A stretch of DNA of 64,000 nucleotides from Nymphaea colorata. Lineage: Eukaryota; Streptophyta; Magnoliopsida; Nymphaeales; Nymphaeaceae. The position numbers and the translations under genes are program-made. The notes under the pieces were generated by a model that was given only the letters and a program-made list of their open reading frames with translations, was not told where the DNA came from and made no database searches. Positions 10,234-64,000 of the stretch are shown piece by piece. Numbering within the stretch: the stretch's first letter is position 1; every line of letters begins with the position of its first letter. The stretch lies in NCBI RefSeq assembly GCF_008831285.2, contig NC_045143.1, forward strand, positions 5,217,503-5,281,502. The letters are read 5' to 3'.

Positions 10234-11921
10234 TCACTCGTTTTCCGGATAAAGCTTGATGGGGTTGAGCTCGGGAAGTGCAGTAAACCCCTTGAGCATG
10301 CCTACATCAAAGTGTGAGAACACAACTTCATCTGGGCACTTGTATTTGGAGACAAATGGACAGGAGACTATGGTGGAAGCATCAGACTGGTCCACGCAGA
10401 AGAAGATCCGAAACAACTGGTAGAGGCTGGTGTTGTAGATCTTGCTACATTGAATTGCAACCTTCTGTCCAATGCCATTGTCAAGTGCCTGCTGGATCGA
10501 CGCCAAACTGTAGTTACTTCCATCGGGAACAATGCCTAGGAGAACAGGGGAAGCAAAAACAAATTAATAGAAAGATATATCATGAACCATAAACTACAAA
10601 TGCTACGGAGAGCAATTCTGAATTGGTATTATTGTGGAGAGAGATGAACTTGAGAATGAACAGAGTCAATAAGGAAGTAAAAGATTTTGCACGGGTTGCC
10701 CGTCTGAAAGTCTCCCTGACCAGTCAAAACTTCAAGTAAAAGACGCAACAGAATCGAGCTCAAAGAGCGTTCACATGCTGTTTACGAAAGAAGAATGTTT
10801 GGTGTATGATTGACGTATGTTGGTGGAAAATTTTTCTTACCATTGTCTTCTAGTATTCGCAGTACATTAACATCTGTTCTTATCTGCAGTGCCTTCTCAA
10901 AATAATCATGTTCACTCAGATTGGTGCACACTCCAAAAGTCTTCCAAATGCTTCTCCAGCTAGATTTTCCATCATTTTGTGGACATTTTATGCTAGGCCA
11001 GTAGAGTTGGAGGCTTTCACTCAGATCCAAAAGCTGAAAAAATAATGACGACAGAGGTTCTCCCAGATTAGCCCAGGCACTATACTTACAGAAAAACATA
11101 TGATTAGTTACGATCAAGTGCATAATAAGTTTTCTTTCCTTTCAGTGACAGAAGGCTAAGAGAACCATGTTCCTGCAAGATTGTTCCAACAGAGGTGCAC
11201 CCACGAATTGAACTCAGCCTTTGAAGCTCTTTCTTAGCATTTTCATGGTAATTAAGCCAGTTTATCTAGTTGGTTCTTATGTGAGTAGTTGTTTTTACTA
11301 GGGGAACAATGTCAGACATAAGCAATTGGAGTATCAGCTAGAGCTTATAAATAGATTTTAACGGTAGTTAATCTACCTCATTGATGTAAAAATTAGAGGA
11401 ACTGCACTTCTTAACTTCTTTTCCGTCATTCGTGTATGTGGCCATGGTAGATACATAAAAATCTTCTGCAGGGGCACCTGTGCTGGGCATGCAGCACCTT
11501 CCTGGCTTCATTTGTGTACAATACGCACCTGGCCACTGTAGATCAAAGCCGTTAGTAGCAAGTGCAGTTGAGCCAAAGCAATGAAGAGAGATTAAGAACC
11601 GATAGATTTAGCTCCTTCAACATTGCTGGAAAGTTTTCATAGTTTTGACTGAAAGATAGTTATATATACATATATAAAGTTTTGCGTGCAATGCTCTCAA
11701 ACCAAGAAAACTTTCACAGTAAAACGTTCACATGACAGACGTTGATACCAACACCTGTCAAAAGAAAGTTCCTAATTTCTTGATATTGAATGTTGCGTGC
11801 ATGCATACACACATGTGTGTGTATGTGTCAACATGTGAACACCTTCGCACACGAATTAGAGACAGAGCCAAGCCATTTCACTACGATACAGGAAAAGCAT
11901 TTCTCCCTCTCTCAATCTCTA

Positions 11922-11965
<44 letters not shown>

Positions 11966-12107
11966 CCTGTCTCTAAAGTGGTATAGGCCAAACGGTGGAT
12001 ACCATTACGCCATAATAGTAAACATCAAAATCAGCAGCAACAAGCGACGAGGTCAGAGCAAGAAACAATGCAACAGAAGTGAGAGCAGAAGAAAGAAAAG
12101 AAGCCAT
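10234..12107 (-). CDS. S-like RNase T2-fold secreted protein lacking catalytic histidines
   Basis: Four exons on the minus strand, 12107-12003, 11535-11377, 11033-10841 and 10535-10234, have GT-AG sites and consistent phase and encode 252 residues. Residues 1-25 are a signal peptide ending VAA before DFDVYYYGVMWPGAYC, the usual start of a mature RNase T2. The fold is well supported: WPGAYC, CCMPSTGAPAEDF, YWPSIKCP, GIVPDGSNYSL, VAIQC, FRIFFCVD and SCPF. All ten cysteines of the canonical class I pattern are present. The active sites are not: CAS I IHGLWP is replaced by VSTMAT (residues 63-68), and CAS II WSHEWEKHGTC by WRSIWKTFGVC (114-124). Both catalytic histidines (Ser64, Phe121), the auxiliary histidine (Ser116) and the acid (Ile117) are gone. 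Likely N-glycosylation sites are NLS, NYS and NTS. RNase activity is not expected. Known inactive class I members exist in plants, with suggested storage or stress roles; the role here is unknown. Confidence 0.92.
11160..11290 (-). mobile_element. Possible degenerate tRNA-derived SINE in intron 2 of the RNase T2-like gene
   Basis: On the minus strand TAGATAAACTGG (near 11270-11259) resembles a polymerase III A box, and GAGTTCAATTCGTGGGTGC (near 11214-11196) resembles a B box followed by the sequence seen in the better SINE at 51869-52107. Spacing is plausible. No target duplication was found and similarity fades outside the B box, so this may be chance or a very old fragment. Confidence 0.3.
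11909..11965. repeat. Compound (TC)n(TG)n microsatellite in intron 1 of the RNase T2-like gene
   Basis: About 28 bases of TC repeats are followed by about 26 bases of GT repeats. On the gene strand this is an (AC)n(AG)n tract that begins about 37 bases after the 5' splice site of intron 1. The length is probably polymorphic. Confidence 0.9.
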
Positions 12108-12183: not shown

Positions 12184-12191
12184 TTTATATA
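12184..12191 (-). promoter_or_regulatory. TATA box of the RNase T2-like gene
   Basis: The minus strand reads TATATAAA, 77 bases before the ATG at 12107. This gives a predicted leader of about 45-50 bases, normal for a plant class II promoter. An intact TATA box supports the view that the gene is still expressed despite the lost active site. Confidence 0.65.
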
Positions 12192-15055: not shown

Positions 15056-15597
15056 CTATCATTAAAGCATTCTTATTGATATCGTCATTCCTTTTAGATA
15101 TCATTTCATGATTCATTATTATACATCTGTGATCCTCTTTCGTGATGAATGGAAATGAACAAACTAAACATAGTGAAGTTAAAGCTTAAGTAATCAAAAT
15201 CTGACTCTTCAAGGATTTCTATTCAGGTCTCAAACATGTCAACGACTAAAGATTTGCTGTTTCTCTTTCAATTGTGAGATATGAACAGGATTGCTGACAC
15301 ACATAATATTTCCGGAAAATTTATTCAGTGGCATTTGGTTGGGTGTCTTAAAATCATGTAAATTTGTACAGTTTAGCAATATTATGTTGTTCTCCATACA
15401 TCAATCTAAGGCGCACAATATGTGGTCTCTACTTATGAAACTACGACTCGTGGACCGTCAGATGTGACTGATCTAACGGTGCATAAGAATGGCATATCTT
15501 ATGTCCTAGTCGGAGTTCTTTTTCCCGCCTCCTGCTTGTGTCCGCCCATATTCCTGCTCTTCCCGCCGCCGCCGGGGGCCTTTCCCACCCACCGGCG

Positions 15598-18500
15598 ATG
15601 CTCTTCTCGGCGTTCTCGCGGCGGCTTCTCCGCCGTAATTCGGCTCTGACAATCTCCTCCTTCCTCGCCACCGCCTCCGTTGCTCGCTTCCCTCCGCCAA
15701 CAACGCCGTCGGATCACATCGTGGAAGTTCCCGACCCTCCCTCCGTCCCCTGGCATCCTACCTTCCTAGGTGCTCCTTCCTGGAGATTCTCTCGGAGTTT
15801 CTCGGAGGGAGTCCTCCCCAAAACCATAAACTACAGGAGCCATGGCGACGCTGATGGAGACGACCTCCTCGTTTGCCCCGGTTGCGGCGTCTACTTGCAG
15901 GACGAGAACCCCAAGCTACCCGGTTTTTTCATCAAACCCTCGACGAAGACTCCCAAATTCTGTTTCCTTTCCGATGATGAGGACCGCAAGCCGGAAGACG
16001 CCAGCGTTAGTTCCAATCCGGTTGAAGAGAAGCCGGTTGTCTGCTCTCGGTGCCACTCGTTGCGATACTACGGCAGGGTGAAGGACGAGAGCGCAGAGAA
16101 TCTGCTGCCTGATTTCGACTTCGATTACTATCTAGGACACCGTCTGTCGAGTTCGACTGGGAGCCGGTCGGTGGTCATGATGGTCGTGGATGCCTCCGAT
16201 TTCGACGGGTCGTTTCCCCGGCGAGTCGCGAGGTTGGTGTCTAACACGATTGAGGAGGACTCTGCGGCGTGGAAGAAGGGGAAACCCGGGAACGTGCCGC
16301 GAGTTGTGCTCGTCGTGACGAAGATCGACCTCCTGCCGTCGAGCATCTCGCCGACGAGGCTGGAGCATTGGGTGCGGCAGCGAGCAAGGGAAGGGGGATC
16401 CAACAAGTTGACGAGCGTTCACCTCGTAAGCGCAGTGCGCGATTGGGGAATGAAGAATCTGATAGAGGATATCAAAGAACTGGTGGGGACGCGGGGGAAT
16501 GTCTGGGCAGTTGGGGCACAGAATGTGGGGAAGTCGACGCTGATCAACGCGATAAGCAAGCAGGTTAAGGGGAAGGTTATGCACCTGACGGAGGCGCCGG
16601 TGCCGGGGACTACATTGGGGATCATTCGGGTGGAGGGCGTGTTTCCCGGTCAGGCCAAATTGTTTGATACACCGGGCATCCTGCATCCTTATCAGATTAC
16701 GACGAGGTTAACGAGAGATGAGCAGAAGTTGGTTCACATCAGTAAGGAGCTTAGGCCAAGGACTTTCAGAGTGAAGGTTTGACGCTTTGTAACTCGCTAT
16801 TTGTTTTCTTGAACAGATTTCGAAACCAGCATGTTAGTTTTTCTGGTTTGGGTTTGGTTAACACTTTCATTCGTGTATTCGAGCTCGAGGAACTGTTCGA
16901 CAAATTGCCACAGCGAACACGAAGAATTCATGATGTTAGATGAATTTTCTAACGAGAACTCATGAAGGTGGTTTTGTATCTACCCATGTCAAAAGTGTTG
17001 TGTAGAAAATAAATGCAATTCGATCAAACGTAAGATTGGCAAATTCATGTCTGAACAACTCAACATAAAAAAGAATAGTCGAAGGCATGAGGATTGATGG
17101 CTTATCTTTATAAGAGCTATGACCATTGAAATCACAGCGTCAATAAGTTGAACCTGGTTACTCTACAAATCCAACCTTGAGGTTACATGGTAGATCGGGT
17201 TCATTTAAAGGAAGTTTTAAAGCTACCAAACCACCTCGTCCATATAAATAATCCCTGTCCATCTTGAAGTCACTTTGCATAACCGAGGAGGTTTCACAAG
17301 ATTTGTTTTAGCCCATGTGCAATATCGTCTTAAGTTTATTTTCTGAACTAATGGTTATGCTCATTAAGTTTAACCTTTTGGTCATAGTCAGAAATGACTT
17401 TTCTCCATCCAATCGCCATTACCGTGTGTTTATCAGTTGGGTAAGAGAAACGCAGGATTGGTTATCCTCCTCTTTTTGTCGATGAATTTATAGTCGTGGT
17501 AGTCTAGTGGTCATCCATCTTTATGGTCCCATAATCTCGCGTATGGAAACAAAGGGCTTTACGTTCTTCTGAACTTAGATGTCTATAATTTTCCTGCAAC
17601 CTTTAAAAGGACGTTCATTGGCATGTGCAAACCGAGCTATGTCTTGATTTATCAAAGCCTGAAACTTTGTTCGTGCTTTGCATTACAAATTAAAATAGTT
17701 TTACGGTTAGATGCACTGTGGAGGTCCAAACTTCAGATTCTTGGTTAAATTGTTACTTTAGCAGTGATCAATGTCGAATAGTTTCTCTACTTGAATATTA
17801 GCTTCTCTAAAAAGATAAATGTTCTTAGTAGCAAATATACCCAATCTTGGAGCATTTTCTGACGAACATTCAGAAGCCTTATGTTGAAATGCTGTATATT
17901 TTACCGCAATAAGTGCATCCAATGTTTTCTCTGCAGGCTGGCTATGCAGTTCATATAGGTGGACTACTGAGGCTGGACGTGGAAGAGGCATCAGTTGATA
18001 CCATTTATCTTACAGTCTGGGCATCTCCTTATATCCCACTTCATATGGGCAGGATTGAGCATGCAAGCACAATGGTGGAAGCTCATTTTGGTCGACAGTT
18101 ACAGGTATTAATACCACTGATTCTTGTGATTTTGAAACGCCAAACTTCATGTCGGTCCCTCTTTATATCCTCATCTAGCTATTGTGATAAATTCTTAATC
18201 TGTGACCATTGTTCATGCAGCCACCAATCGGTGAAAAACGAGTTGGCGAACTTGGAAAATGGATCAGGCGGGAATATAAAGTTTCTGGAGCCAGTTGGGA
18301 CGTGAACTCCACAGATGTGGCTGCTGCTGGGCTTGGTTGGTTTGCCATAGGATTGAAGGGAGAGGCTGTTCTTGGTGTATGGTGTTACGATGGAATTGAT
18401 ATCACGGTGCGCAGTGCATTAATCCCTGACAAAGCAAAAATGTTTGAAACTGCTGGATTCACAGTCTCAAAAATTGTGTCAAGGGCTGACAAAGCCATGA

Positions 18501-23485: not shown

Positions 23486-24659
23486 GCACACCGACAGTCC
23501 ACAGGCCTATATATTATTTATAAATTCATTTCACGAAATTATTTTTTAATGGCTTAACTTTAAGGCAGGGAATAATTAATTAGCCGCCCCCGTTCCGAGA
23601 AAGGTGAAGCGGTTCGGATATAACCGGATCCAAACCAGATAACAAAGTCATCCATCCATCCAGCGTTTGTCTTCAGTCGGATATCGAAGTTTTAAGTCCA
23701 AATCCGGGTCCCAGTGGGGCTCCACTCGACTTTTTCATGCATCGACAGCTTTCATTATATCAAAAAGAGTTGTTCCGATCGACTTGCTTAAACCAAAGTG
23801 GTAGAAAGCTTCAAAACTCATGAGAGTTGGTGCCTTTTTATAACCAAACTTCTCTTGTACCATGAACCAAAGAAACATTGAAAAGAAAAAAGATTTCAGA
23901 TATACAAAATATATCGCTATTATTATTCTAAAAAAGAAGTTGTTTGTGGCACTTAATTACGTGTTGACTCTCAAATTGCATGAGGTTAAAGTACGATCTC
24001 TGTTTTTCTTTCTTTCTTTTTAATGTAATCTTGATCGGAAGAAGGTGACTAAGAAAGCATGGGATCAGTATGGATCCACGGAATTGATGTCAAAGATAAA
24101 AATATATATATATATAAATGAATCAGATGCACCGCCGCATATTACTCACCGCTCCCCATTAACCAAATTCAACATTTATTGCCACCTCCGGCCGCCCACC
24201 AGTTACACTAAAATTATGAGCCTATCCATTGGTGATTTGGATCCAAATTCAACGTCCAATTGAATTCAAATCTGTTTAATATAATATGCATCCGGCTGCT
24301 TATAAAATAAATTATATGAAGGGAAAAAAATAAAGAAAAAAGCTGAAAATCAAATTCTTGAAGAATTTAATGGTAAGTTCCAATTATTGAGAATGGGGGG
24401 TTAAAGTTAAGGAGTAGGTAAAATGGAAGGATCGGCGATGGTTGCGTAGCGGCTGTCGCTAAACCAAGGCCACTCGCACCTTCTCCCCCACTTTCCGTTA
24501 CATATTCCCTTCTTCCCCCTTTCTCCTCTCTCCTCTCCTTCCCTCTTCGTCACTCAACTGAGCAGCAGTGAGAGGGAGAGGTGGTTTCCTGACTTCCCCT
24601 GCGGTTTTCCGACATACCATCGTGAAGTTTTTTGGTTGGGAGCGGATAAATCTTCAGAT

Positions 24660-25433
24660 ATGAACGATCGCGTTTATCCGGCGTCCAGACCGGCGGGGGC
24701 GGCGCCGGCGGGGGGAGCGGCTGGGGCCGGTGGGACTGGCGGGCCGACCTACATGAAGTCCCAACTTTACAGCGCTAATCGGCCTGCGTACCGTCCTCAG
24801 CCCAAGCGGCGGCGGTCGAAGAGGCGGTGCTGCTGCCTCTGCTTCATCTGGACCTGCATCGTCGTGCTTTTCCTTATCCTGGCGGCCGCGGTGGCCGCCG
24901 CTGTCTGCTGGGTGCTCTTCCGGCCTCAGCGGCCCGTGTTTACGGTGTCGGCGCTCCAGATCTCGAAGCTCAACGTCACGGGGGGGTCGACGGTGGACTC
25001 CCTTGTTTCCATCTCGCTCGACGCGAAGAACCCGAACAAGAAGGTCGAGTTTTTCTATGACGACATCTCCGTGACGGCCGACTCTGGGGGCGTGTCGCTC
25101 GGGTCCGGGTCGGTCCCTGGCTTCCAGCACGCGGCGAAGAACACGACGATGGTGTCGGCGACCCTGTCCGCGAAGGGCGAGAAGGTGGACTCCGACGGAG
25201 CGAAGGCGCTGGCGGCGGATCTGAAGAAGAACAGCGTGCCGCTGTCGATCGAGTTGGACACGAAGGTTCGGGCGAAGATGGGGGCGCTGCGGAGCTGGAG
25301 GTTGGGAATCAAGGTTTCCTGCGACGGCTTCTCCGTCGCCGTCGTCAAGAAGAAGGGCGCGGCTCCGCCTTCCCTCTCCGACGGCAAATGCGCCATTAAA
25401 ATCCGGGTCAAGATTCTCAGATGGGAGTTTTGA
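24660..25433 (+). CDS. NDR1/HIN1-like (NHL) membrane protein with LEA_2 domain
   Basis: Single exon, 257 residues. The N-terminus MNDRVYPASRPAG is followed by a Gly/Ala-rich stretch, YRPQPKRRRSKRRCCCLC with a basic and cysteine-rich juxtamembrane part, a membrane segment at about 62-87, then FRPQRPVFTVSALQISKLNV. The extracytoplasmic part has the LEA_2 signature DAKNPNKKVEFFYDDISV (near 121-138), a glycosylation site NTT and a late Cys pair. This arrangement matches plant NHL proteins (YLS9/NHL6/NHL13 type), plasma-membrane proteins involved in defence and abiotic stress signalling. The ATG at 24660 is chosen because MNDRVYP matches the family start; the reading is open upstream but has no ATG there. 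The exon is strongly GC-rich compared with its surroundings. Assignment to a specific NHL number is not possible from sequence alone. Confidence 0.93.
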   Translation: MNDRVYPASRPAGAAPAGGAAGAGGTGGPTYMKSQLYSANRPAYRPQPKRRRSKRRCCCLCFIWTCIVVLFLILAAAVAAAVCWVLFRPQRPVFTVSALQISKLNVTGGSTVDSLVSISLDAKNPNKKVEFFYDDISVTADSGGVSLGSGSVPGFQHAAKNTTMVSATLSAKGEKVDSDGAKALAADLKKNSVPLSIELDTKVRAKMGALRSWRLGIKVSCDGFSVAVVKKKGAAPPSLSDGKCAIKIRVKILRWEF

Positions 25434-39300: not shown

Positions 39301-40525
39301 TAACCCCCCTATCCCTCTCTCCCTCTCTATTTCTCTTTCCAATCTCTTCTTACGTCATTCTAGTTCTGGCTTTTCTTCTGTTTTCATTTCTCTTTGCTGT
39401 GTTTTTTGTGCAAACTTGGGTCTCCTTGCTGTGTTTTTTGTGCAAAACTATGAATAATAGCTGGCCGGATTGGTGGACAGGTGAAAACTGGTCATCAGTT
39501 CAATTCATGTGGATACAAGACATTTTAATTGACAAGTATCTCTACCTAAGTTTCAAAGCAATCCTAGACCCAAGGGGCAGGGACTTAGAACTTGATATCT
39601 CCACGCACCCCCTTCCAACCTCTTCAACTATGATTCTATGAATAATATCCAAAAGCTAATTATTTTACATGTTCATATTATTTAAAGAAACAGAGTTTTT
39701 TTTTTTTTTTTTGAACCTTGGGCACATGAATTGCTGGTCCTCGCAAGCATCACAAGTTTGGTGACCTTCTACCTCATGTTAGATAGAAAATCTCACAAGC
39801 ATGCATGGATGCCGCGTTTGCTTCATCTTAGACTGCCATGTGAGATACTGTAACATCATGTCCAAGACTACCCATCTACTAAAACTAACACGACCTAATT
39901 CAAGAAGGATAAATTTTATACTGGACTAAGAAAACATGAGAATGTCATTAGAAAACTGTTTCTTTTATGATCAGAAACTAAGCAGCAGCCTAAGCTCCTA
40001 GAAGAAGCGATGGGATGCGATGATGAGCTAATCCACAAGCAAGAACAGTCATGAAGTCACCTCGAGCGACCAAAAAAATTAGTTTTCTAGTTGTGTCGTA
40101 TTAAATGTCAATAGCTTGGAGGAAAATTAAGTTGCACTCGGTCCTGCTGCCAATGCAAGCTTCGGTATTCGTGCTTTGCCTCTGACTCGAACTCTTTTCG
40201 GCTCCTACTCATTGTCTTATTATTAATAGATATTCCCACTTTCATGTATAACGAATACATATGTATATTCACATAATAGGGAGAGAAGCATGAAGAGAGC
40301 AGAGACTAGATGTGTCTCTTTTTAAGTGCAAAGCAGAACAGAGGCCTGGCAGTCTGATCTTTCCCTGCCCGGCTGCCCCTCCCTCCCTTTTCATAGGTCG
40401 TCGACCGACTCGATGCCCATCACCCTTTAATTCCCTCTGCGGCTTCTTCTTAATTTCTTCTGCAGAAAATCTTCATATTCAAGCTGATGAGAAGCTAAGG
40501 AGTGGTTGCCAACCAGAGTTTCAAA
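36397..40525. other. Intergenic region upstream of the OFP gene
   Basis: A 136-codon plus frame at 36464-36874 begins in GC-richer DNA and encodes a charged polypeptide (FGRPMSRDQWAAFTKLQKVE) of unknown identity. Degenerate tandem repeats occupy about 37427-37621. The rest is AT-rich with poly-A runs and (39660-39715) a T run. The last 1 kb should include the promoter and the CT-rich leader of the OFP gene (40360-40500). Confidence 0.45.
37427..37621. repeat. Degenerate tandem repeat, about 60-bp unit
   Basis: Three diverged units share CAATTCC, GTGAAA/GTTGAAAAT, TTCAAAACATTAA or TTCCAAAATATTAA. The plus-strand translation shows the period as ENFQNIK, ENFQNIK and ENFQHIN. A further degenerate unit may precede at 37350-37420. 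Confidence 0.55.
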
Positions 40526-41710
40526 ATGGAAACGAGGCTCAAGCTTCGGTTGTCCAGATTACTGCGTTCCTCCTTCCATTCTTGCAAGTCTGGAAACCCA
40601 ATGGACTCAGTGCAAGAACCGGTGTTTCTTGCCAACCATGGCAGCGATCTCCTTCCCCTCCTTCCCTGTAGTGAGAAAGCAGGGGCAGCAGGGCTCCCGC
40701 TGGGCGTCGCAATTGGGTGGGGCTGCAGGCCTCGCCGGCTGCCGGGATCGACGGCGACTACTGCAACGACGTCCGCCTCTGATCAGTTAGACATGTCTGA
40801 AGACGACGAGTCACTCGTTGAGTTCCTGCACCTGGTGGAGACGCGTAAGGCGATGTTAGAAGCGAGAGCCAAGAGCAGCGAAGGGTGCGAGGGTGAGGAC
40901 CAAAGCAGTGATGACGGAAGAAGCAGCCGTCGGGTCTCGCCTAGCGCCGTCTCCGTTACCGCTGAACATGCCAACTACTGCGGGACAGGTGAACCTAACG
41001 ATGCTCGTCGTGTTGATAAGAATGATGGAAGGAAGGTGCTCAGTGGCAGCCAGGAGAGGAAGATGGAAAAGACCAAGACGAAGAAGAAGAAGGCAGCGAA
41101 GAAAAAGAAACAAAGGAAAGAATCCTGTAGAGTCAGGAGGAAGGCTCGTAACGGAGACAGGAATCTGCAGAGCACGTCCTCTTCTGACAGCGGGTGGTTC
41201 AGCAGCCAGGAAGACAAGCAGCAAAGAATCGATGGCAGAGAGACGGAGGCACTCTTCTCCTCGAAGAGCGGTTCGTCGGAGTCGTCGGAGCTCCGCCCCG
41301 TCGATGGCAGCAGCTGCGTCGGCTCTACCTCCAACAGGCACCAGAGACGCCCTAGAAGAAAAAGAGAGAAGAAGCAGAGCAGGGCTCCCCAACTCAACCC
41401 CACAGCTTCTTCATCTTCTTCCTCATCCTGCTCTTCCTCAGCTTCCTGCTGCTGCTGCTCGTACGGAGCAGGGGCTGATTACACGATGAACCAGAAGGTG
41501 AATGACAGCGTGGCAGTGGTTAAGCGTTCGAACGACCCCTACAGTGACTTCAGGGAGTCGATGGTGGAGATGATCATTGAGAAGCAAATCTTCGACCATG
41601 GCGATCTGAAGCAGCTCCTCCACTGCTTCCTTTCCCTGAATTCTCAGTACCACCATCCCGTCATCATCGACGTCTTCTGGGAAATTTGGCACGCTCTGTT
41701 CAGCGCCTAG
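40526..41710 (+). CDS. OVATE family protein (OFP), transcriptional repressor
   Basis: Single exon of 394 residues. The C-terminal OVATE domain (about 328-394) is complete: VVKRSNDPYSDFRESMVEMIIEK, DLKQLLHCFLSLNS and HPVIIDVFWEIWHALFS. The N-terminus METRLKLRLSRLLRSSFHSC resembles the conserved basic start of several OFPs, and this chooses the ATG at 40526; the frame is open upstream but has no ATG there. The middle is long and disordered, with acidic (SEDDESLVEFLHLVETRKAM), Lys/Arg-rich (KTKTKKKKAAKKKK, likely nuclear localisation) and Ser/Cys-rich homopolymeric parts. Plant OFPs bind TALE homeodomain and TRM proteins and repress growth genes, shaping fruit, leaf and secondary wall. Absence of introns is normal for the family. 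GC content is higher than in the flanks. I cannot assign an OFP number. Confidence 0.95.
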   Translation: METRLKLRLSRLLRSSFHSCKSGNPMDSVQEPVFLANHGSDLLPLLPCSEKAGAAGLPLGVAIGWGCRPRRLPGSTATTATTSASDQLDMSEDDESLVEFLHLVETRKAMLEARAKSSEGCEGEDQSSDDGRSSRRVSPSAVSVTAEHANYCGTGEPNDARRVDKNDGRKVLSGSQERKMEKTKTKKKKAAKKKKQRKESCRVRRKARNGDRNLQSTSSSDSGWFSSQEDKQQRIDGRETEALFSSKSGSSESSELRPVDGSSCVGSTSNRHQRRPRRKREKKQSRAPQLNPTASSSSSSSCSSSASCCCCSYGAGADYTMNQKVNDSVAVVKRSNDPYSDFRESMVEMIIEKQIFDHGDLKQLLHCFLSLNSQYHHPVIIDVFWEIWHALFSA

Positions 41711-43875: not shown

Positions 43876-44176
43876 GGTTCAGTTAACATGAAAAAAAAAA
43901 AATTGAGACCTAAAGGTATGGCCTTAGGTTTTATTGTCAAACAATTTCCCCTAAATACAACATTTAAATCATTTTGAAAAATGGCTTCTTCACCACCTTA
44001 TTCTCACCCATATCCATCCATGAATCCTAGGTTCAGTTAACATACAGACAAATGAGACCTAAAGGTATGGCCTTAGGTTTTATTGTCAAACAATTTCCCC
44101 TAAATACAACATTTAAATCATTTTGAAAAATGGCCTCTTCACCACCTTATTCTCACCCATATCCATCCATGAATCC
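43876..44176. repeat. Tandem duplication, about 154-bp unit
   Basis: Unit 1 (43876-44029) and unit 2 (44030-44176) both start GGTTCAGTTAACAT and end CCATCCATGAATCC. After the first 30 bases, where unit 1 has an A12 run, the two copies are almost identical; one clear difference is GGCTTCTTC against GGCCTCTTC. The duplication is recent. Confidence 0.9.
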
Positions 44177-46782: not shown

Positions 46783-48777
46783 TCAGTTCACCGGAGCCCA
46801 GACGAGGTGATCCTGTGGAAGGAAGTGGCAGACAGGGACGGACCCAGGCTTGACACCAAGAACCCGGAAGGCCAAGTGCTTGGGATTCCAGGTGGAGGTA
46901 TCCAAATGGCACACGGCCACCGCGTTCACCTTGCTGCCGTCGTCGGCCCCCAAGGGCACGACGTAGGCTCGGCTGGCCGTGGTCTTGTGGCAGTAGAACA
47001 CGGCGTAGGGGTAGGGCTGGTTGTGGCAGACGACGGAGGTCGGGGTGGCCACCAACTCGACCCCGCCGAGGACGGTGTAAGTCCTTCTCTCCTGTGGGTT
47101 GTCCCCCTTCTCGACCTCCGTTGCCAGCACCTGGAGGTGGCGGGTCCCGAGCTGCGAGACGGAGAAGTCGACCATGGACTCCAGGGAGGTGGCGCAGTAC
47201 CTGGTCTCCCCCTTGTTGGCGGGCTCCTCGCACTCCTGCAGCGTGCGCTTCATGAGGGAGGCCTCCTTGGAGTTGGGGGACAGAGAGAACCGGTGGAGGA
47301 TGTCGGGGAACTTGGCGGTGGAGAAGGGCGTGGCGTCGGCGACGGCCCGGGGCACGAAGGCCGGACCTGCGCCGTCGGTCCTGACGAACTGGAGGTTCAT
47401 CTTTTTGCCCTGGTGGAGGTCCTTCTCGAGGAAGAAGAGAGCGACGTTCGGGTCGTACTTGAGCTGGTCCTCGCTCGCCGCATAGTTATACAAGAAGGGA
47501 CCATATGGGGCTCGCACGACGACGGGCTTCCGGCCGTGACCGGAGTACACTCCGACGCCGTGACCGACGTTCACATAGGTGCCGGGAGCGTGAACCCTGA
47601 CGCCGGGACGACCGACGATCACGTGAGTGCCGGGGGCGTTCACTACGACTTCTTTTCCTTCTGCGCCCACTTCGGTTGCCTGCTTCTCCACCAAATCTGC
47701 AAAGTTTGACATCAGTTTCGCGCTATCTCCCAATTCAGGTCAGGTCAAGGTTATTTTATACTTACATATATTGAATGTCATGAGAACCATTTACTTTTAT
47801 AGTCTGTAAAATCTTTAGCATTCTCATGAGATTGTCGATGGTATATCTATGATCTTACTATTTGTGTAGCAATGCATGCTTGAAATAGTGCTGTCTTTGT
47901 CTCTCTCAAGGTCGTCTTCTTTTCACCTTTTCACTTTGACTAGCTTGTGATAGTTACCGGAGTGCGGATGAAAATGGAAAATGGGTGGAGGGAGAAAATA
48001 AATGCTGGTTGATCGGAAGGTGCTGCAGTTGGCTCTAGAATCGCACCATTGAATGATGAAATAAATTTTAAGCACACGACTTCAGCATGGTGTAATTTAA
48101 TTTACATTCAATGTAAGTGAGCAAAGTGTTCGTCCCACTTTTTGGGTTCATACTGTTCTCACCAACCAACTTGTTTTCCTTTCATTTGAAAGGTTTTTCT
48201 ATATCTGCTACTTTTTCTTGCCAATTATAAAGAAACTGTATAAAACGAAGACAAGAAGAAGCAAAAGAGGTTGTGCCAAAATGAATTGGGCCCAAAAGCA
48301 TGATCAGTCAGTTGCCTCAGTGGAACACTGGCTTATGGGAATGACAAAAATCAGTTTCAAGCCGCCTTCTATTTTGAAGCTATTTCATTTTCTCAATTCA
48401 AGAAATTTATAGGTACAGATTTTTTACACCATTTCCTTAGCAGATTGGAGTTCTGCAGGCACAGACTCGATTCCACTAAGAAATTTAATTACCAGTGTTT
48501 GAGATGGCAACTCACCGGGATATAAGAACGCACGGACGACGTCCGGCATGTGAGTATCAGGCAACACATGCTTCCAATAGCTAGAAGGGCTGAGAGCCGC
48601 ACTGCTGACTTGAACGAGCTGAGGACCAAAAAACAGGGATCAAAGAGAAGAACAGGAAACCCAAAACTACTTGCTCAGTGAACTCCAGTATTCAACTGAA
48701 ACAATCACATAAACACTTGACAGTGAAGCCAAATAACTCACCAGGAACGCAGAGAGAAGGAGTGCGAGTCTCGCCAT
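46783..48777 (-). CDS. BURP domain protein, RD22-like
   Basis: Three exons on the minus strand (48777-48742, 48618-48516, 47696-46783) encode 350 residues. MARLALLLSAFLVQV is a signal peptide. The post-signal segment LSPSSYWKHVLPDTHMPDVVRAFLYPD is the conserved BURP-family segment. Next come short valine-rich repeats with THV/TYV motifs (residues 63-100), as in RD22. The BURP domain (about 134-350) begins FFLEKDLHQG and has the exact diagnostic spacing CH-X10-CH-X25-CH-X25-CH, with CHNQPYPYAVFYCH and VCHFLPQDHLVW. These are secreted plant-specific cell-wall proteins; RD22 is induced by drought and abscisic acid, and others modify pectin or form cyclic peptides. I see no cyclic-peptide core repeats here, so the RD22-like class is favoured. 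Exon 3 is GC-rich, and a TATA box sits 98 bases before the ATG. Confidence 0.95.
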
Positions 48778-61474: not shown

Positions 61475-63203
61475 TTATGGATGAACGCCATCCTTGTCAT
61501 GCTGTTCATGAGTACTTTCTCGTGTCCCCGGCCTTCGGCAGCAACAAGCGTCTGACGAAATCACTACTCTTTCATCCTCAAACAGAGAGCCAATCTCTTC
61601 CAGTGTCTTGCCTTTGGTTTCAGGCAGAAACATGTAGAAGAAAAGGGCACCGAGTGCTGCTATTCCTGAGAAGAGGAAGAAGGTTCCACCCACTGAGAGG
61701 GCCTTCACCATGGAAAGGAAGGACATGGACACGACTCCACTAACCACTCTGTTGACAGACAGGGCCAAGCCGGAGCCCTGGGCTCGCAGCCTCAACGGGA
61801 ACACCTCCGACGAGTAGACCCAGTTTATAGGGCCCATCCCTATGGAGAAGAAGGAGACGTCAGCGCAGATGGCAACAATGGACAGGGCAATAGTCCAGGT
61901 GAATTTAGTAGCTTTTCCGGCTTTTTCGATGAGCTTAGAGCACACGCCCAGCGTGAAGAGTGACGCTGCCATCCCGCAGGAGCCCGTTAGCAGCAGCGGC
62001 CTCCTTCCCACCCTGTCTAGGAACAAGGCGGAGATGATCACAAAGGATGTCTTCACAAGTCCCATTATTATGGTCACAGCCACCAGATGCTGCTTCTTTT
62101 GGATGCCGGCCGCCTTGATCACCTCCGGCGTGTAATACACCACGGCGTCGTTCCCAGATGCCTGCATAAAGATGTTGAGTCCGATGGCTACCAATAGGAT
62201 CCGCCGCACGGCTCTTGAGGGGCTCACCAGCAGCTCCCTCCACACGCTCTTCTTGCCTGCTTCCAAGCTTTCCTGCCTTGCTGCTGCCACTATCTCCGCC
62301 AGCCGGGCCTCTGCTTCTTCGCCATCCACTGAAGTTCTGTCCAGCACTTTTTTGGCTTCGCCCGTTCGACCTTGAGCCACCAACCATCTAGGGGACTCCG
62401 GCATGGCTATCAGCCCGATTATTAGCATCGCAGCAGGAATGCCGGCAACTCCGAGCATCAGTCTCCAATTCAGGTGTTCCGGCAGACCGGAAAAAGCATA
62501 ATTGAGAATGTAGCCCACCAGGATACCCACGGTGATGAACACCTCAGGCAAAGATGTGAGCAATCCCCTGGTTGAAGCCGGTGAAACCTCGGCAGTGTAA
62601 ACGGGCCCCGTCATCAGAGAGTACCCAACACCAATGCCCGCGACTGCCCTTCCAACCATAAGGATGACGAAGGAGTTCGCTAGGCTCATGGACAGCGCAC
62701 CCACGAGGAAGGTGGTAGAAGCTATGACCATGGTGTATCTCCTTCCTATCCAATCTGCAGTCTTTCCTGATACCATGGCACCAAACAGGGAGAAGAAGTT
62801 AAGTGATCCCACCAAGATTTCTTCCTGTGTGGAACTTATCCTGAGATCCTCCTTGATGAACAGAATTGCTCCGCTCATCACGCCAATATCTGCATCAGTC
62901 AATGGCAAATACAATCTGTTTCAGTTCGTTGGTAGAAGATGAATTGTTCAATTTCTGCACCTTTTTTGCATAAAAACGAATTGGAAAGAAAACAGGAACT
63001 CCAATTATAAGAAGATAACACTCACCATAACCCAAGAGGATTGAATTCATGGAAGCCAGGACAGCACAAGCAAATGCATACTTGCTTAGAGGCGCCTTCC
63101 CCTCGCTGCGGCTGCTGCTTGCAGGTGTGACAACCTCTCCCTGCTGGCTCTTTTCCAGCTCCACTCTGACTGCTTCCCGTCTCTCGTCCTCCGGAGCCAT
63201 CAT
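61475..63203 (-). CDS. Polyol/monosaccharide transporter (PLT family, MFS)
   Basis: Two exons on the minus strand (63203-63026, 62889-61475) encode 530 residues, normal for plant polyol transporters. The N-terminus is cytosolic and polar, then KYAFACAVLASMNSILLGYDIGVMSGA starts helix 1, with the intron splitting the Asp codon. Sugar-porter signatures are all present: GRRYTM after helix 2, PESPRWLV after helix 6, RVGRRPLLL after helix 8, PINWVYSSEVFPLRLRAQG and PETKGKTLEEI after helix 12. Twelve membrane segments can be drawn. PLTs are proton symporters of sorbitol, mannitol, inositol and related sugars at the plasma membrane. The FIKEDLRISSTQEE segment favours PLT over STP or inositol carriers. 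Two adjacent ATGs (63203 and 63200) are possible starts. The C-terminal 25 residues, with CCCRRPG, are unusual and may be lineage-specific. The substrate cannot be read from sequence. Confidence 0.95.
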
Positions 63204-63750: not shown

Positions 63751-63860
63751 CTAGTATGGTTTAAACACCTGTTTCTTTAACTAGGTAACCTCCTCAAGCA
63801 CAAGGCTAGTATGGTTTAAACACCTGTTTCTTTAACTAGGTAACCTCCTCAAGCACAAGC
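63751..63860. repeat. Exact tandem duplication, 55-bp unit
   Basis: CTAGTATGGTTTAAACACC starts both units (63751 and 63806), and each runs 55 bases to CAAGCACAAG. They differ only at the last base. This is a very recent duplication about 550 bp upstream of the polyol transporter start. Confidence 0.92.
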
Positions 63861-64000
63861 CTACTTATTTTTTATTTAATCATGGAAACAAATAGGAGGA
63901 AACATAGGCCCTCAAAGGCTCAATATGAGAGCTAATAACAGGATAACTAAGAAGAAAAACTACGGACACATTTCGACGATATTTTATTAAGCAAGTAATA

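What the first reader, a model, noticed from the sequence alone, without database searches (positions are those of the whole stretch)
10234..12107. Intact RNase T2-fold gene whose two active-site motifs are erased while all ten cysteines remain
Read directly: CAS I IHGLWP is VSTMAT, and CAS II WSHEWEKHGTC is WRSIWKTFGVC, so both catalytic histidines, the auxiliary histidine and the acidic residue are all substituted. Yet the frame is open across four exons with GT-AG borders, the signal peptide and TATA box are present, and the ten Cys of class I RNase T2 line up. This suggests selection on a secreted, non-catalytic protein rather than decay. Inactive class I members are known from plants, but loss of both motifs together is extreme. 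Possible roles are storage protein, RNA or glycan binding, or defence; all are inference.
Basis: partly seen in the sequence, partly recalled or inferred. Interest (0 to 1): 0.8.

Follow-up and report, generated by a model that had tools for sequence, protein, structure and literature searches.

The report
Intact plant RNase without active site
A flowering-plant gene still encodes a complete ribonuclease-type protein although its catalytic residues have been replaced; it is a further example of a kind already known from grasses and other plants, with an unusual tail that may send it to the vacuole.

Summary
On the minus strand, four GT-AG exons (12107-10234) encode a 252-aa RNase T2 protein (PF00445, E 1.1e-39) in which IHGLWP reads VSTMAT and WSHEWEKHGTC reads WRSIWKTFGVC, with all ten class I cysteines. 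Two class I paralogs on C2 are intact with both motifs. Two copies on C3 are decayed: frames broken or exons missing, motif residues largely kept. The window gene is the reverse. Of positions invariant in six active enzymes it keeps 24 of 33 outside the motifs but 4 of 18 inside (p = 0.001), so gradual neutral decay is unlikely. "Extreme" is overstated: rice OsRNS4 and OsRNS5 lack both histidines, OsRNS5 also the glutamate, and a 37-sequence grass clade lacks one or both. I read the protein as non-catalytic, probably a vacuolar reserve or stress protein. Vacuole and storage are inference. New member of a known kind.

The parts
12184..12191 (-). TATATAAA, TATA-box-like, 77-84 nt upstream of the ATG
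   Evidence: Pattern match only
12003..12107 (-). Exon 1 (codons 1-35), signal-peptide-like start included (codons 1-24 = 12036-12107, cleavage guessed by eye)
   Evidence: donor chosen among four in-frame candidates by alignment and paralog intron position
12003..12008 (-). Val34-Met35 where active enzymes have Gln-Gln before WPG
11377..11535 (-). Exon 2 (codons 36-88)
11437..11454 (-). Former CAS I: VSTMAT (63-68) in place of IHGLWP; catalytic His to Ser64, Trp to Ala67
10841..11033 (-). Exon 3 (codon 89 to the first base of codon 153)
10926..10958 (-). Former CAS II: WRSIWKTFGVC (114-124) in place of WSHEWEKHGTC; His to Ser116, Glu to Ile117, Lys to Thr120, His to Phe121; W114, W118, G122, C124 kept
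10234..10535 (-). Exon 4, to the stop codon
10237..10308 (-). C-terminal tail of 24 residues (229-252), absent from both active paralogs, which end at EFPAF-stop
10252..10266 (-). NPIKL (243-247), resembling the NPIRL vacuolar sorting signal
   Evidence: meaning of the motif from PMC4844349 and PMC3095312 passages

Best explanation
It is a class I plant RNase T2 pseudoenzyme. A duplicate of an active secretory RNase kept its frame, splice sites and ten-cysteine scaffold but lost both catalytic histidines, the glutamate and lysine of CAS II, the CAS I tryptophan and the two glutamines before WPG, so it should not cleave RNA. I propose that the C-terminal tail with NPIKL is read by vacuolar sorting receptors and that the protein collects in the vacuole as a stable disulfide-rich reserve or stress protein, the role suggested for the inactive rice OsRNS4 and for CalsepRRP. 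Shown: gene model, substitutions, retained scaffold residues, active paralogs without a tail. Inferred: folding, lack of activity, sorting, storage. By step: non-catalytic class I paralog kept by selection, about 0.85; vacuole, about 0.5; reserve or stress protein, about 0.4. The confidence below is for the whole chain.
For: PF00445 and class I enzymes match. Introns at the same codons and phases as two intact active paralogs. Motif residues kept 4 of 18 against 24 of 33 elsewhere, p 0.00095. No stop-free run among 1000 simulated decays to the same motif loss. Decayed C3 copies show the opposite pattern. NPIKL in a tail that both active paralogs lack. NPIR or similar sequences are named as vacuolar sorting signals (PMC4844349 passages). 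Inactive OsRNS4 is strongly induced in zinc-deficient rice and storage is suggested (PMC5520845 section 7 and passages).
Against: No transcript or protein data. Nitrogen per residue is the lowest of the five proteins compared (1.259 against 1.267-1.406), and the genome searches found only this one inactive copy, neither of which suggests a storage protein. The NPIKL match was noticed after reading; a loose form of the motif occurs in 11% of shuffled tails and also at residue 144. A lost stop codon alone would also give a tail. PMC4844349 says these signals were identified from lytic vacuolar proteins. pI stays acidic at 4.90, unlike the basic shift reported for His-less class I members.
Confidence: 0.4

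Rival explanations
1. A non-catalytic apoplastic protein that binds a ligand (RNA, glycan or a microbial molecule) in defence or stress signalling; the tail is only run-on after a lost stop.
For: The active class I relatives are largely secreted (PMC5598434 section 14); inactive OsRNS4 is reported to respond to biotic and abiotic stress and to raise salt tolerance when overexpressed (PMC5943562 passages).
Against: The residues of the former cleft that would meet RNA are gone (QQ, H, W, H, E, K, H); NPIKL fits a vacuolar signal.
Confidence: 0.25
2. A pseudoenzyme that regulates, or pairs with, the active paralogs.
For: Motif sites diverged more than the rest (pN 0.60 against 0.43 with C2a, 0.58 against 0.41 with C2b), as expected if the cleft was remodelled; pseudoenzymes often regulate active relatives (general knowledge).
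Against: No evidence of co-expression or binding; plant RNase T2 enzymes acting with inactive partners are not known to me.
Confidence: 0.1
3. A relic: functional for long as a non-enzyme, now silent or recently dead.
For: No expression evidence is available; the branch is long (1.27 against 0.11 and 0.13 for the paralogs).
Against: Open frame, splice sites, TATA-like box and all ten cysteines are kept.
Confidence: 0.12
4. Still an enzyme, with other residues doing RNase or another catalysis.
For: PMC10211241's abstract (seen in the listing) notes that some pseudoenzymes have migrated catalytic residues.
Against: Only two histidines remain, 130 and 227, neither at a catalytic position in the alignment; no structure could be predicted.
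Confidence: 0.05

Closest known systems
Rice OsRNS4 (AK061438) and OsRNS5 (AK109411), the 'monocot inactive cluster' of class I
   Same: Class I; both catalytic histidines lost (Lys66/Tyr125; Ala67/Ser125); OsRNS5 also loses the glutamate (PMC5520845; cluster name in PMC7793952)
   Different: Other replacement residues here (Ser64, Ser116, Phe121, Ile117). Their sequences were not held, so whether they have a tail, and whether they are sisters of this gene, is not known here
His-less class I sequences of PMC5598434: 67 sequences in nine clades, among them 37 from grasses and 14 from Caryophyllales
   Same: Class I with three introns is the commonest pattern there; catalytic histidines lost
   Different: pI stays acidic (4.90), whereas the paper ties loss of the histidines to a shift to basic pI (it counts nine such shifts in class I, seven with His loss)
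CalsepRRP of Calystegia sepium (1jy5)
   Same: Inactive RNase T2 protein proposed as storage protein; E 1.1e-10 to the window protein
   Different: Class II and lacking one histidine according to the papers
Active class I RNases: RNase NW (1iyb), LE (1dix), NT (1vcz), and C2a, C2b of the same genome
   Same: Fold family and ten cysteines; 34-38% identity; introns shared with C2a and C2b
   Different: They keep both motifs and are 60-85% identical to each other; C2a and C2b end without a tail
Sporamin NPIRL vacuolar sorting signal
   Same: NPIKL keeps Asn, Pro, Ile and Leu (signal described)
   Different: Here it lies in a C-terminal tail, not in an N-terminal propeptide, and is untested

Membership tests
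RNase T2 family (PF00445) | Match over the whole domain above the curated cut-off | tested here: met
   137 bits against a cut-off of 26, profile 1-188 of 188
Catalytically active RNase T2 | CAS I and CAS II with two catalytic His and Glu | tested here: not met
   Ser64, Ser116, Phe121, Ile117
Plant class I RNase T2 | Three introns at conserved positions (pattern I-D; one of them, position 2, is class I only) | tested here: met
   Same codons and phases as C2a and C2b. The position numbers come from PMC5598434, whose figure is not held, so they were matched through the paralogs
Plant class I RNase T2 | Ten cysteines of class I (number recalled) | tested here: met
   10 of 10 Cys columns of five class I enzymes
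Plant class I RNase T2 | Groups with class I in a tree | tested here: inconclusive
   Seven-sequence tree, supports 53-65, long branch; identity 34-38% to class I against 24% to RNase MC1
Monocot inactive cluster (OsRNS4/5) | Common descent after the loss of catalysis | not testable with these tools
Processed or decayed pseudogene | Broken frame, lost splice sites or lost introns | tested here: not met
   Open frame, three GT-AG introns; contrast with the C3 copies
Vegetative storage protein | High abundance and remobilisation | not testable with these tools
   No expression or proteome data
Vegetative storage protein | Raised nitrogen content (a common but not strict trait, recalled) | tested here: not met
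   1.259 N per residue, lowest of five compared
Cargo with an NPIR-type vacuolar sorting signal | NPIR(L)-like motif in a propeptide or tail | tested here: met
   NPIKL 243-247
Cargo with an NPIR-type vacuolar sorting signal | The motif directs the protein to the vacuole | not testable with these tools
   Needs a fusion experiment

The most novel reading that the evidence does not exclude
One duplicate of an extracellular RNase lost its whole active site and gained a C-terminal vacuolar sorting signal, turning a digestive enzyme into a vacuolar reserve protein, in a lineage far from the grasses (perhaps water lily) and without the usual change to a basic pI: a separate origin of an inactive storage RNase in which relocation was the second step.
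Probability: 0.3. Interest if true: 0.5.

Novelty: new member of a known kind. Interest (0 to 1): 0.3.

Why it matters
One genome holds active, decayed and inactive-but-intact copies of one small gene family, which lets pseudoenzyme and pseudogene be told apart side by side. If the tail sorts to the vacuole, it would show how a secreted RNase can turn into a reserve protein. Otherwise it adds one case to a documented pattern of repeated loss of catalysis in class I RNase T2.

Tried and rejected
Gradual neutral decay: rejected; recent silencing is not excluded. Second copy in the window: tblastn gave only chance-level hits outside the gene (E 1.7 and higher). S-locus-like F-box linkage: my own rough pattern found no match in six frames; weak evidence. 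Relatives in public collections: in viral contigs 1 locus matching 18 residues, judged chance; in prokaryote genome contigs 27 pattern matches, none a relative. Rfam and tRNA scans of the window: nothing. NCBIfam: nothing. Promoter elements were counted but not interpreted; the sigma-70-type scan does not apply to a plant. dN/dS on the branch: saturated. Species from rbcL: gene found, but PDB relatives do not name the species. Structure prediction and fold comparison: not available.

Papers. Passages only: PMC9250077, PMC5479900, PMC7793952, PMC7994793, PMC4844349, PMC3095312, PMC5943562, PMC5006382, PMC8774079, PMC7015852, PMC13149400. PMC5598434: passages and section 14. PMC5520845: passages and section 7. 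PMC10211241: start of the abstract in a listing. MacIntosh 2010 is not held and is known only through citations. I do not claim that the tail is unreported; one search with RNase T2, NPIR, vacuolar and inactive listed 12 of 32 papers, none holding both RNase T2 and NPIR.

Full report
What is there. The gene lies on the minus strand. Exons 12107-12003, 11535-11377, 11033-10841 and 10535-10234 join to a 252-residue protein without internal stops; the introns are GT-AG with phases 0, 0 and 1. Four in-frame choices exist for the first donor; the chosen one aligns without a gap there to solved enzymes and falls at the intron position of the active paralogs. The protein matches PF00445 at 1.1e-39 over the whole profile and RNase NW, LE and NT at 3.3e-43 to 5.4e-37. 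IHGLWP is VSTMAT, WSHEWEKHGTC is WRSIWKTFGVC, and the Gln-Gln before WPG is Val-Met. All ten columns that are Cys in five class I enzymes are Cys here.

The window's own genome as control. The assembly has 407.8 Mb in 783 contigs, with the window on C6. Searches with PF00445, the window protein and a paralog point to five class I loci. Two on C2, on one strand about 9 kb apart (C2a and C2b here), give intact four-exon models of 220 and 219 residues, carry IHGLWP and WSHEWEKHGTC, and have their introns at the same codons and phases as the window gene. Two on C3 are decayed. In one, the mature start follows a stop codon without a signal peptide, exon 2 has an 11-base gap, and no exon 4 was found; in the other, no exon 1 or 2 was found and exons 3 and 4 hold gaps (one search found none of the missing exons nearby either). 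The first still reads IHGLWP and WSHEWERHGAC, the second WSHEWEKHG before its frame breaks. So decay in this family breaks frames and largely spares the motif residues, while the window gene shows the reverse. The decayed copies are young (90-98% and 82-92% identical in DNA to a C2 gene), so they show early decay only. Further matches on C209 and C554 look like contamination. The searches read exon by exon and score only the best candidates, so class II genes, with eight introns, could have been missed.

Selection. Of 51 columns invariant in six active enzymes the window protein keeps 4 of 18 in the motif windows and 24 of 33 elsewhere (Fisher p 0.00095); with five class I enzymes 4 of 18 and 45 of 73 (p 0.0035). 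Earlier runs gave 4 of 18 against 25 of 39 with four enzymes (p 0.0045; without Cys 3 of 17 against 20 of 34, p 0.0073) and 4 of 18 against 50 of 97 with three (p 0.038; without Cys p 0.032). As control, each of the four active enzymes, scored against the other three, keeps 18 of 18 motif positions and 39 of 42, 40, 48 and 82 others. The motif windows come from the finding, so these tests are post hoc. Simulated neutral point substitution to the same motif loss left 0 of 1000 runs free of stops (mean 8.0) and 0 of 1000 with all ten cysteines; with one fifth of the motif changed, 123 of 1000 were still free of stops. The simulation starts from the window gene itself and has no indels. Against C2a and C2b, pN is 0.445 and 0.422 and pS 0.900 and 0.957 (pN below pS in 1000 of 1000 bootstraps each); pS is saturated, so omega is not estimable, and the comparison also covers the time before the loss. 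C2a against C2b gives omega 0.14. In a seven-sequence tree the window branch is 1.27 against 0.11 and 0.13 for the paralogs; supports of 53-65 do not fix its place.

Tail. C2a and C2b end at EFPAF-stop; the window protein runs on for 24 residues, DVGMLKGFTALPELNPIKLYPENE. NPIKL resembles NPIRL of sporamin; NPIR or similar sequences are named as sequence-specific vacuolar sorting signals, identified from lytic vacuolar proteins (PMC4844349 passages). PMC3095312 (passages) shows that a related tetrapeptide, SPIL, sorts a protein to the vacuole and that replacing its Ile abolishes this, and it cites a paper whose title places the core of the sporamin signal in the Ile and Leu side chains; both are present here. 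NPI(R/K)L occurs in 6e-5 of shuffled tails and in none of 50,000 random 24-mers; a medium pattern in 0.014 and 0.0012; a loose one in 0.11 and 0.043, and the loose one also at residue 144 of the protein. The match was noticed after reading and a lost stop alone would give a tail, so it is a lead, not a result.

How it most likely works. The protein enters the secretory pathway, forms its disulfides, cannot cleave RNA, and is probably sorted to the vacuole, where a compact disulfide-rich glycoprotein (three N-glycosylation sequons) could serve as reserve or stress protein. Everything after the gene model is inference. Against storage: nitrogen per residue is the lowest of the five proteins compared, and only one inactive copy was found.

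Compared with what is known. PMC5598434 counts 67 class I sequences without the essential histidine in nine clades, among them a 37-sequence grass clade lacking one or both. In rice, OsRNS4 lacks both histidines and OsRNS5 both and the glutamate; OsRNS4 is raised 29-fold in zinc-deficient roots and storage of amino acids is suggested (PMC5520845). OsRNS4 overexpression is reported to raise salt tolerance (PMC5943562). Loss of both motifs is therefore not new. Different here: pI 4.90, next to 4.92 and 4.89 in the active paralogs, where PMC5598434 ties loss of the histidines to a basic shift; and the tail, which could not be looked for in the rice proteins.

Which plant. No tool named it. The total of 407.8 Mb and the sampled contigs (C1 44.0, C2 36.3, C3 30.9, C6 26.3, C13 18.0, C14 12.6, C15 7.3, C16 1.3 Mb) fit the 409-Mb, 14-pseudo-chromosome genome of the water lily Nymphaea colorata (PMC7015852 passages), and contamination by an aquatic protist would fit too. 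Against: that paper reports 804 scaffolds with 770 anchored, which would leave far fewer than 783 sequences, and C15 is large for an unplaced piece. I put it at about 0.6. If right, the loss is probably independent of the grass cluster. PMC9250077, with 81 genomes, names Amborella as its basal angiosperm and does not mention Nymphaea in its main text.

Verdict. A real, well-formed pseudoenzyme gene, a new member of a known kind, with one new lead, the tail.

Noticed in passing
G000 contigs C209 and C554 (L014, L015): Several RNase T2 genes of another type, some with in-frame TAA/TAG, beside a kinase-like ORF. One copy reads WEHEW across a TAA or TAG under the peritrich code (Glu). Looks like ciliate contamination of a plant assembly; ciliate origin is judged by eye.
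   Followed up: partly
G000 C3:5257500-5268500 (L012, L013): Two decayed class I RNase copies with motif residues largely kept, 82-98% identical to the C2 genes over the matched exons against C2b and C2a.
   Followed up: yes
window 11904-11966: CT/GT microsatellite inside intron 1 of the RNase gene.
   Followed up: no
window 43904-44176 and 63751-63863: Near-perfect tandem repeats of 149 bp (1.8 copies) and 55 bp (2.1 copies).
   Followed up: no
window 15487-16782, 24450-25433, 40499-41710, 46783-47739, 61475-62920: Neighbours with Pfam matches: GTPase, LEA_2, OVATE, BURP and sugar transporter. Third-position GC is 0.83-0.84 in the BURP and LEA_2 genes against 0.46 in the RNase gene.
   Followed up: no
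G000, many small contigs (C70, C168, C669, C783 and others): Full rbcL frames on four of the small contigs and fragments on others and on chromosome-size contigs: plastid pieces or nuclear plastid DNA in the assembly.
   Followed up: no
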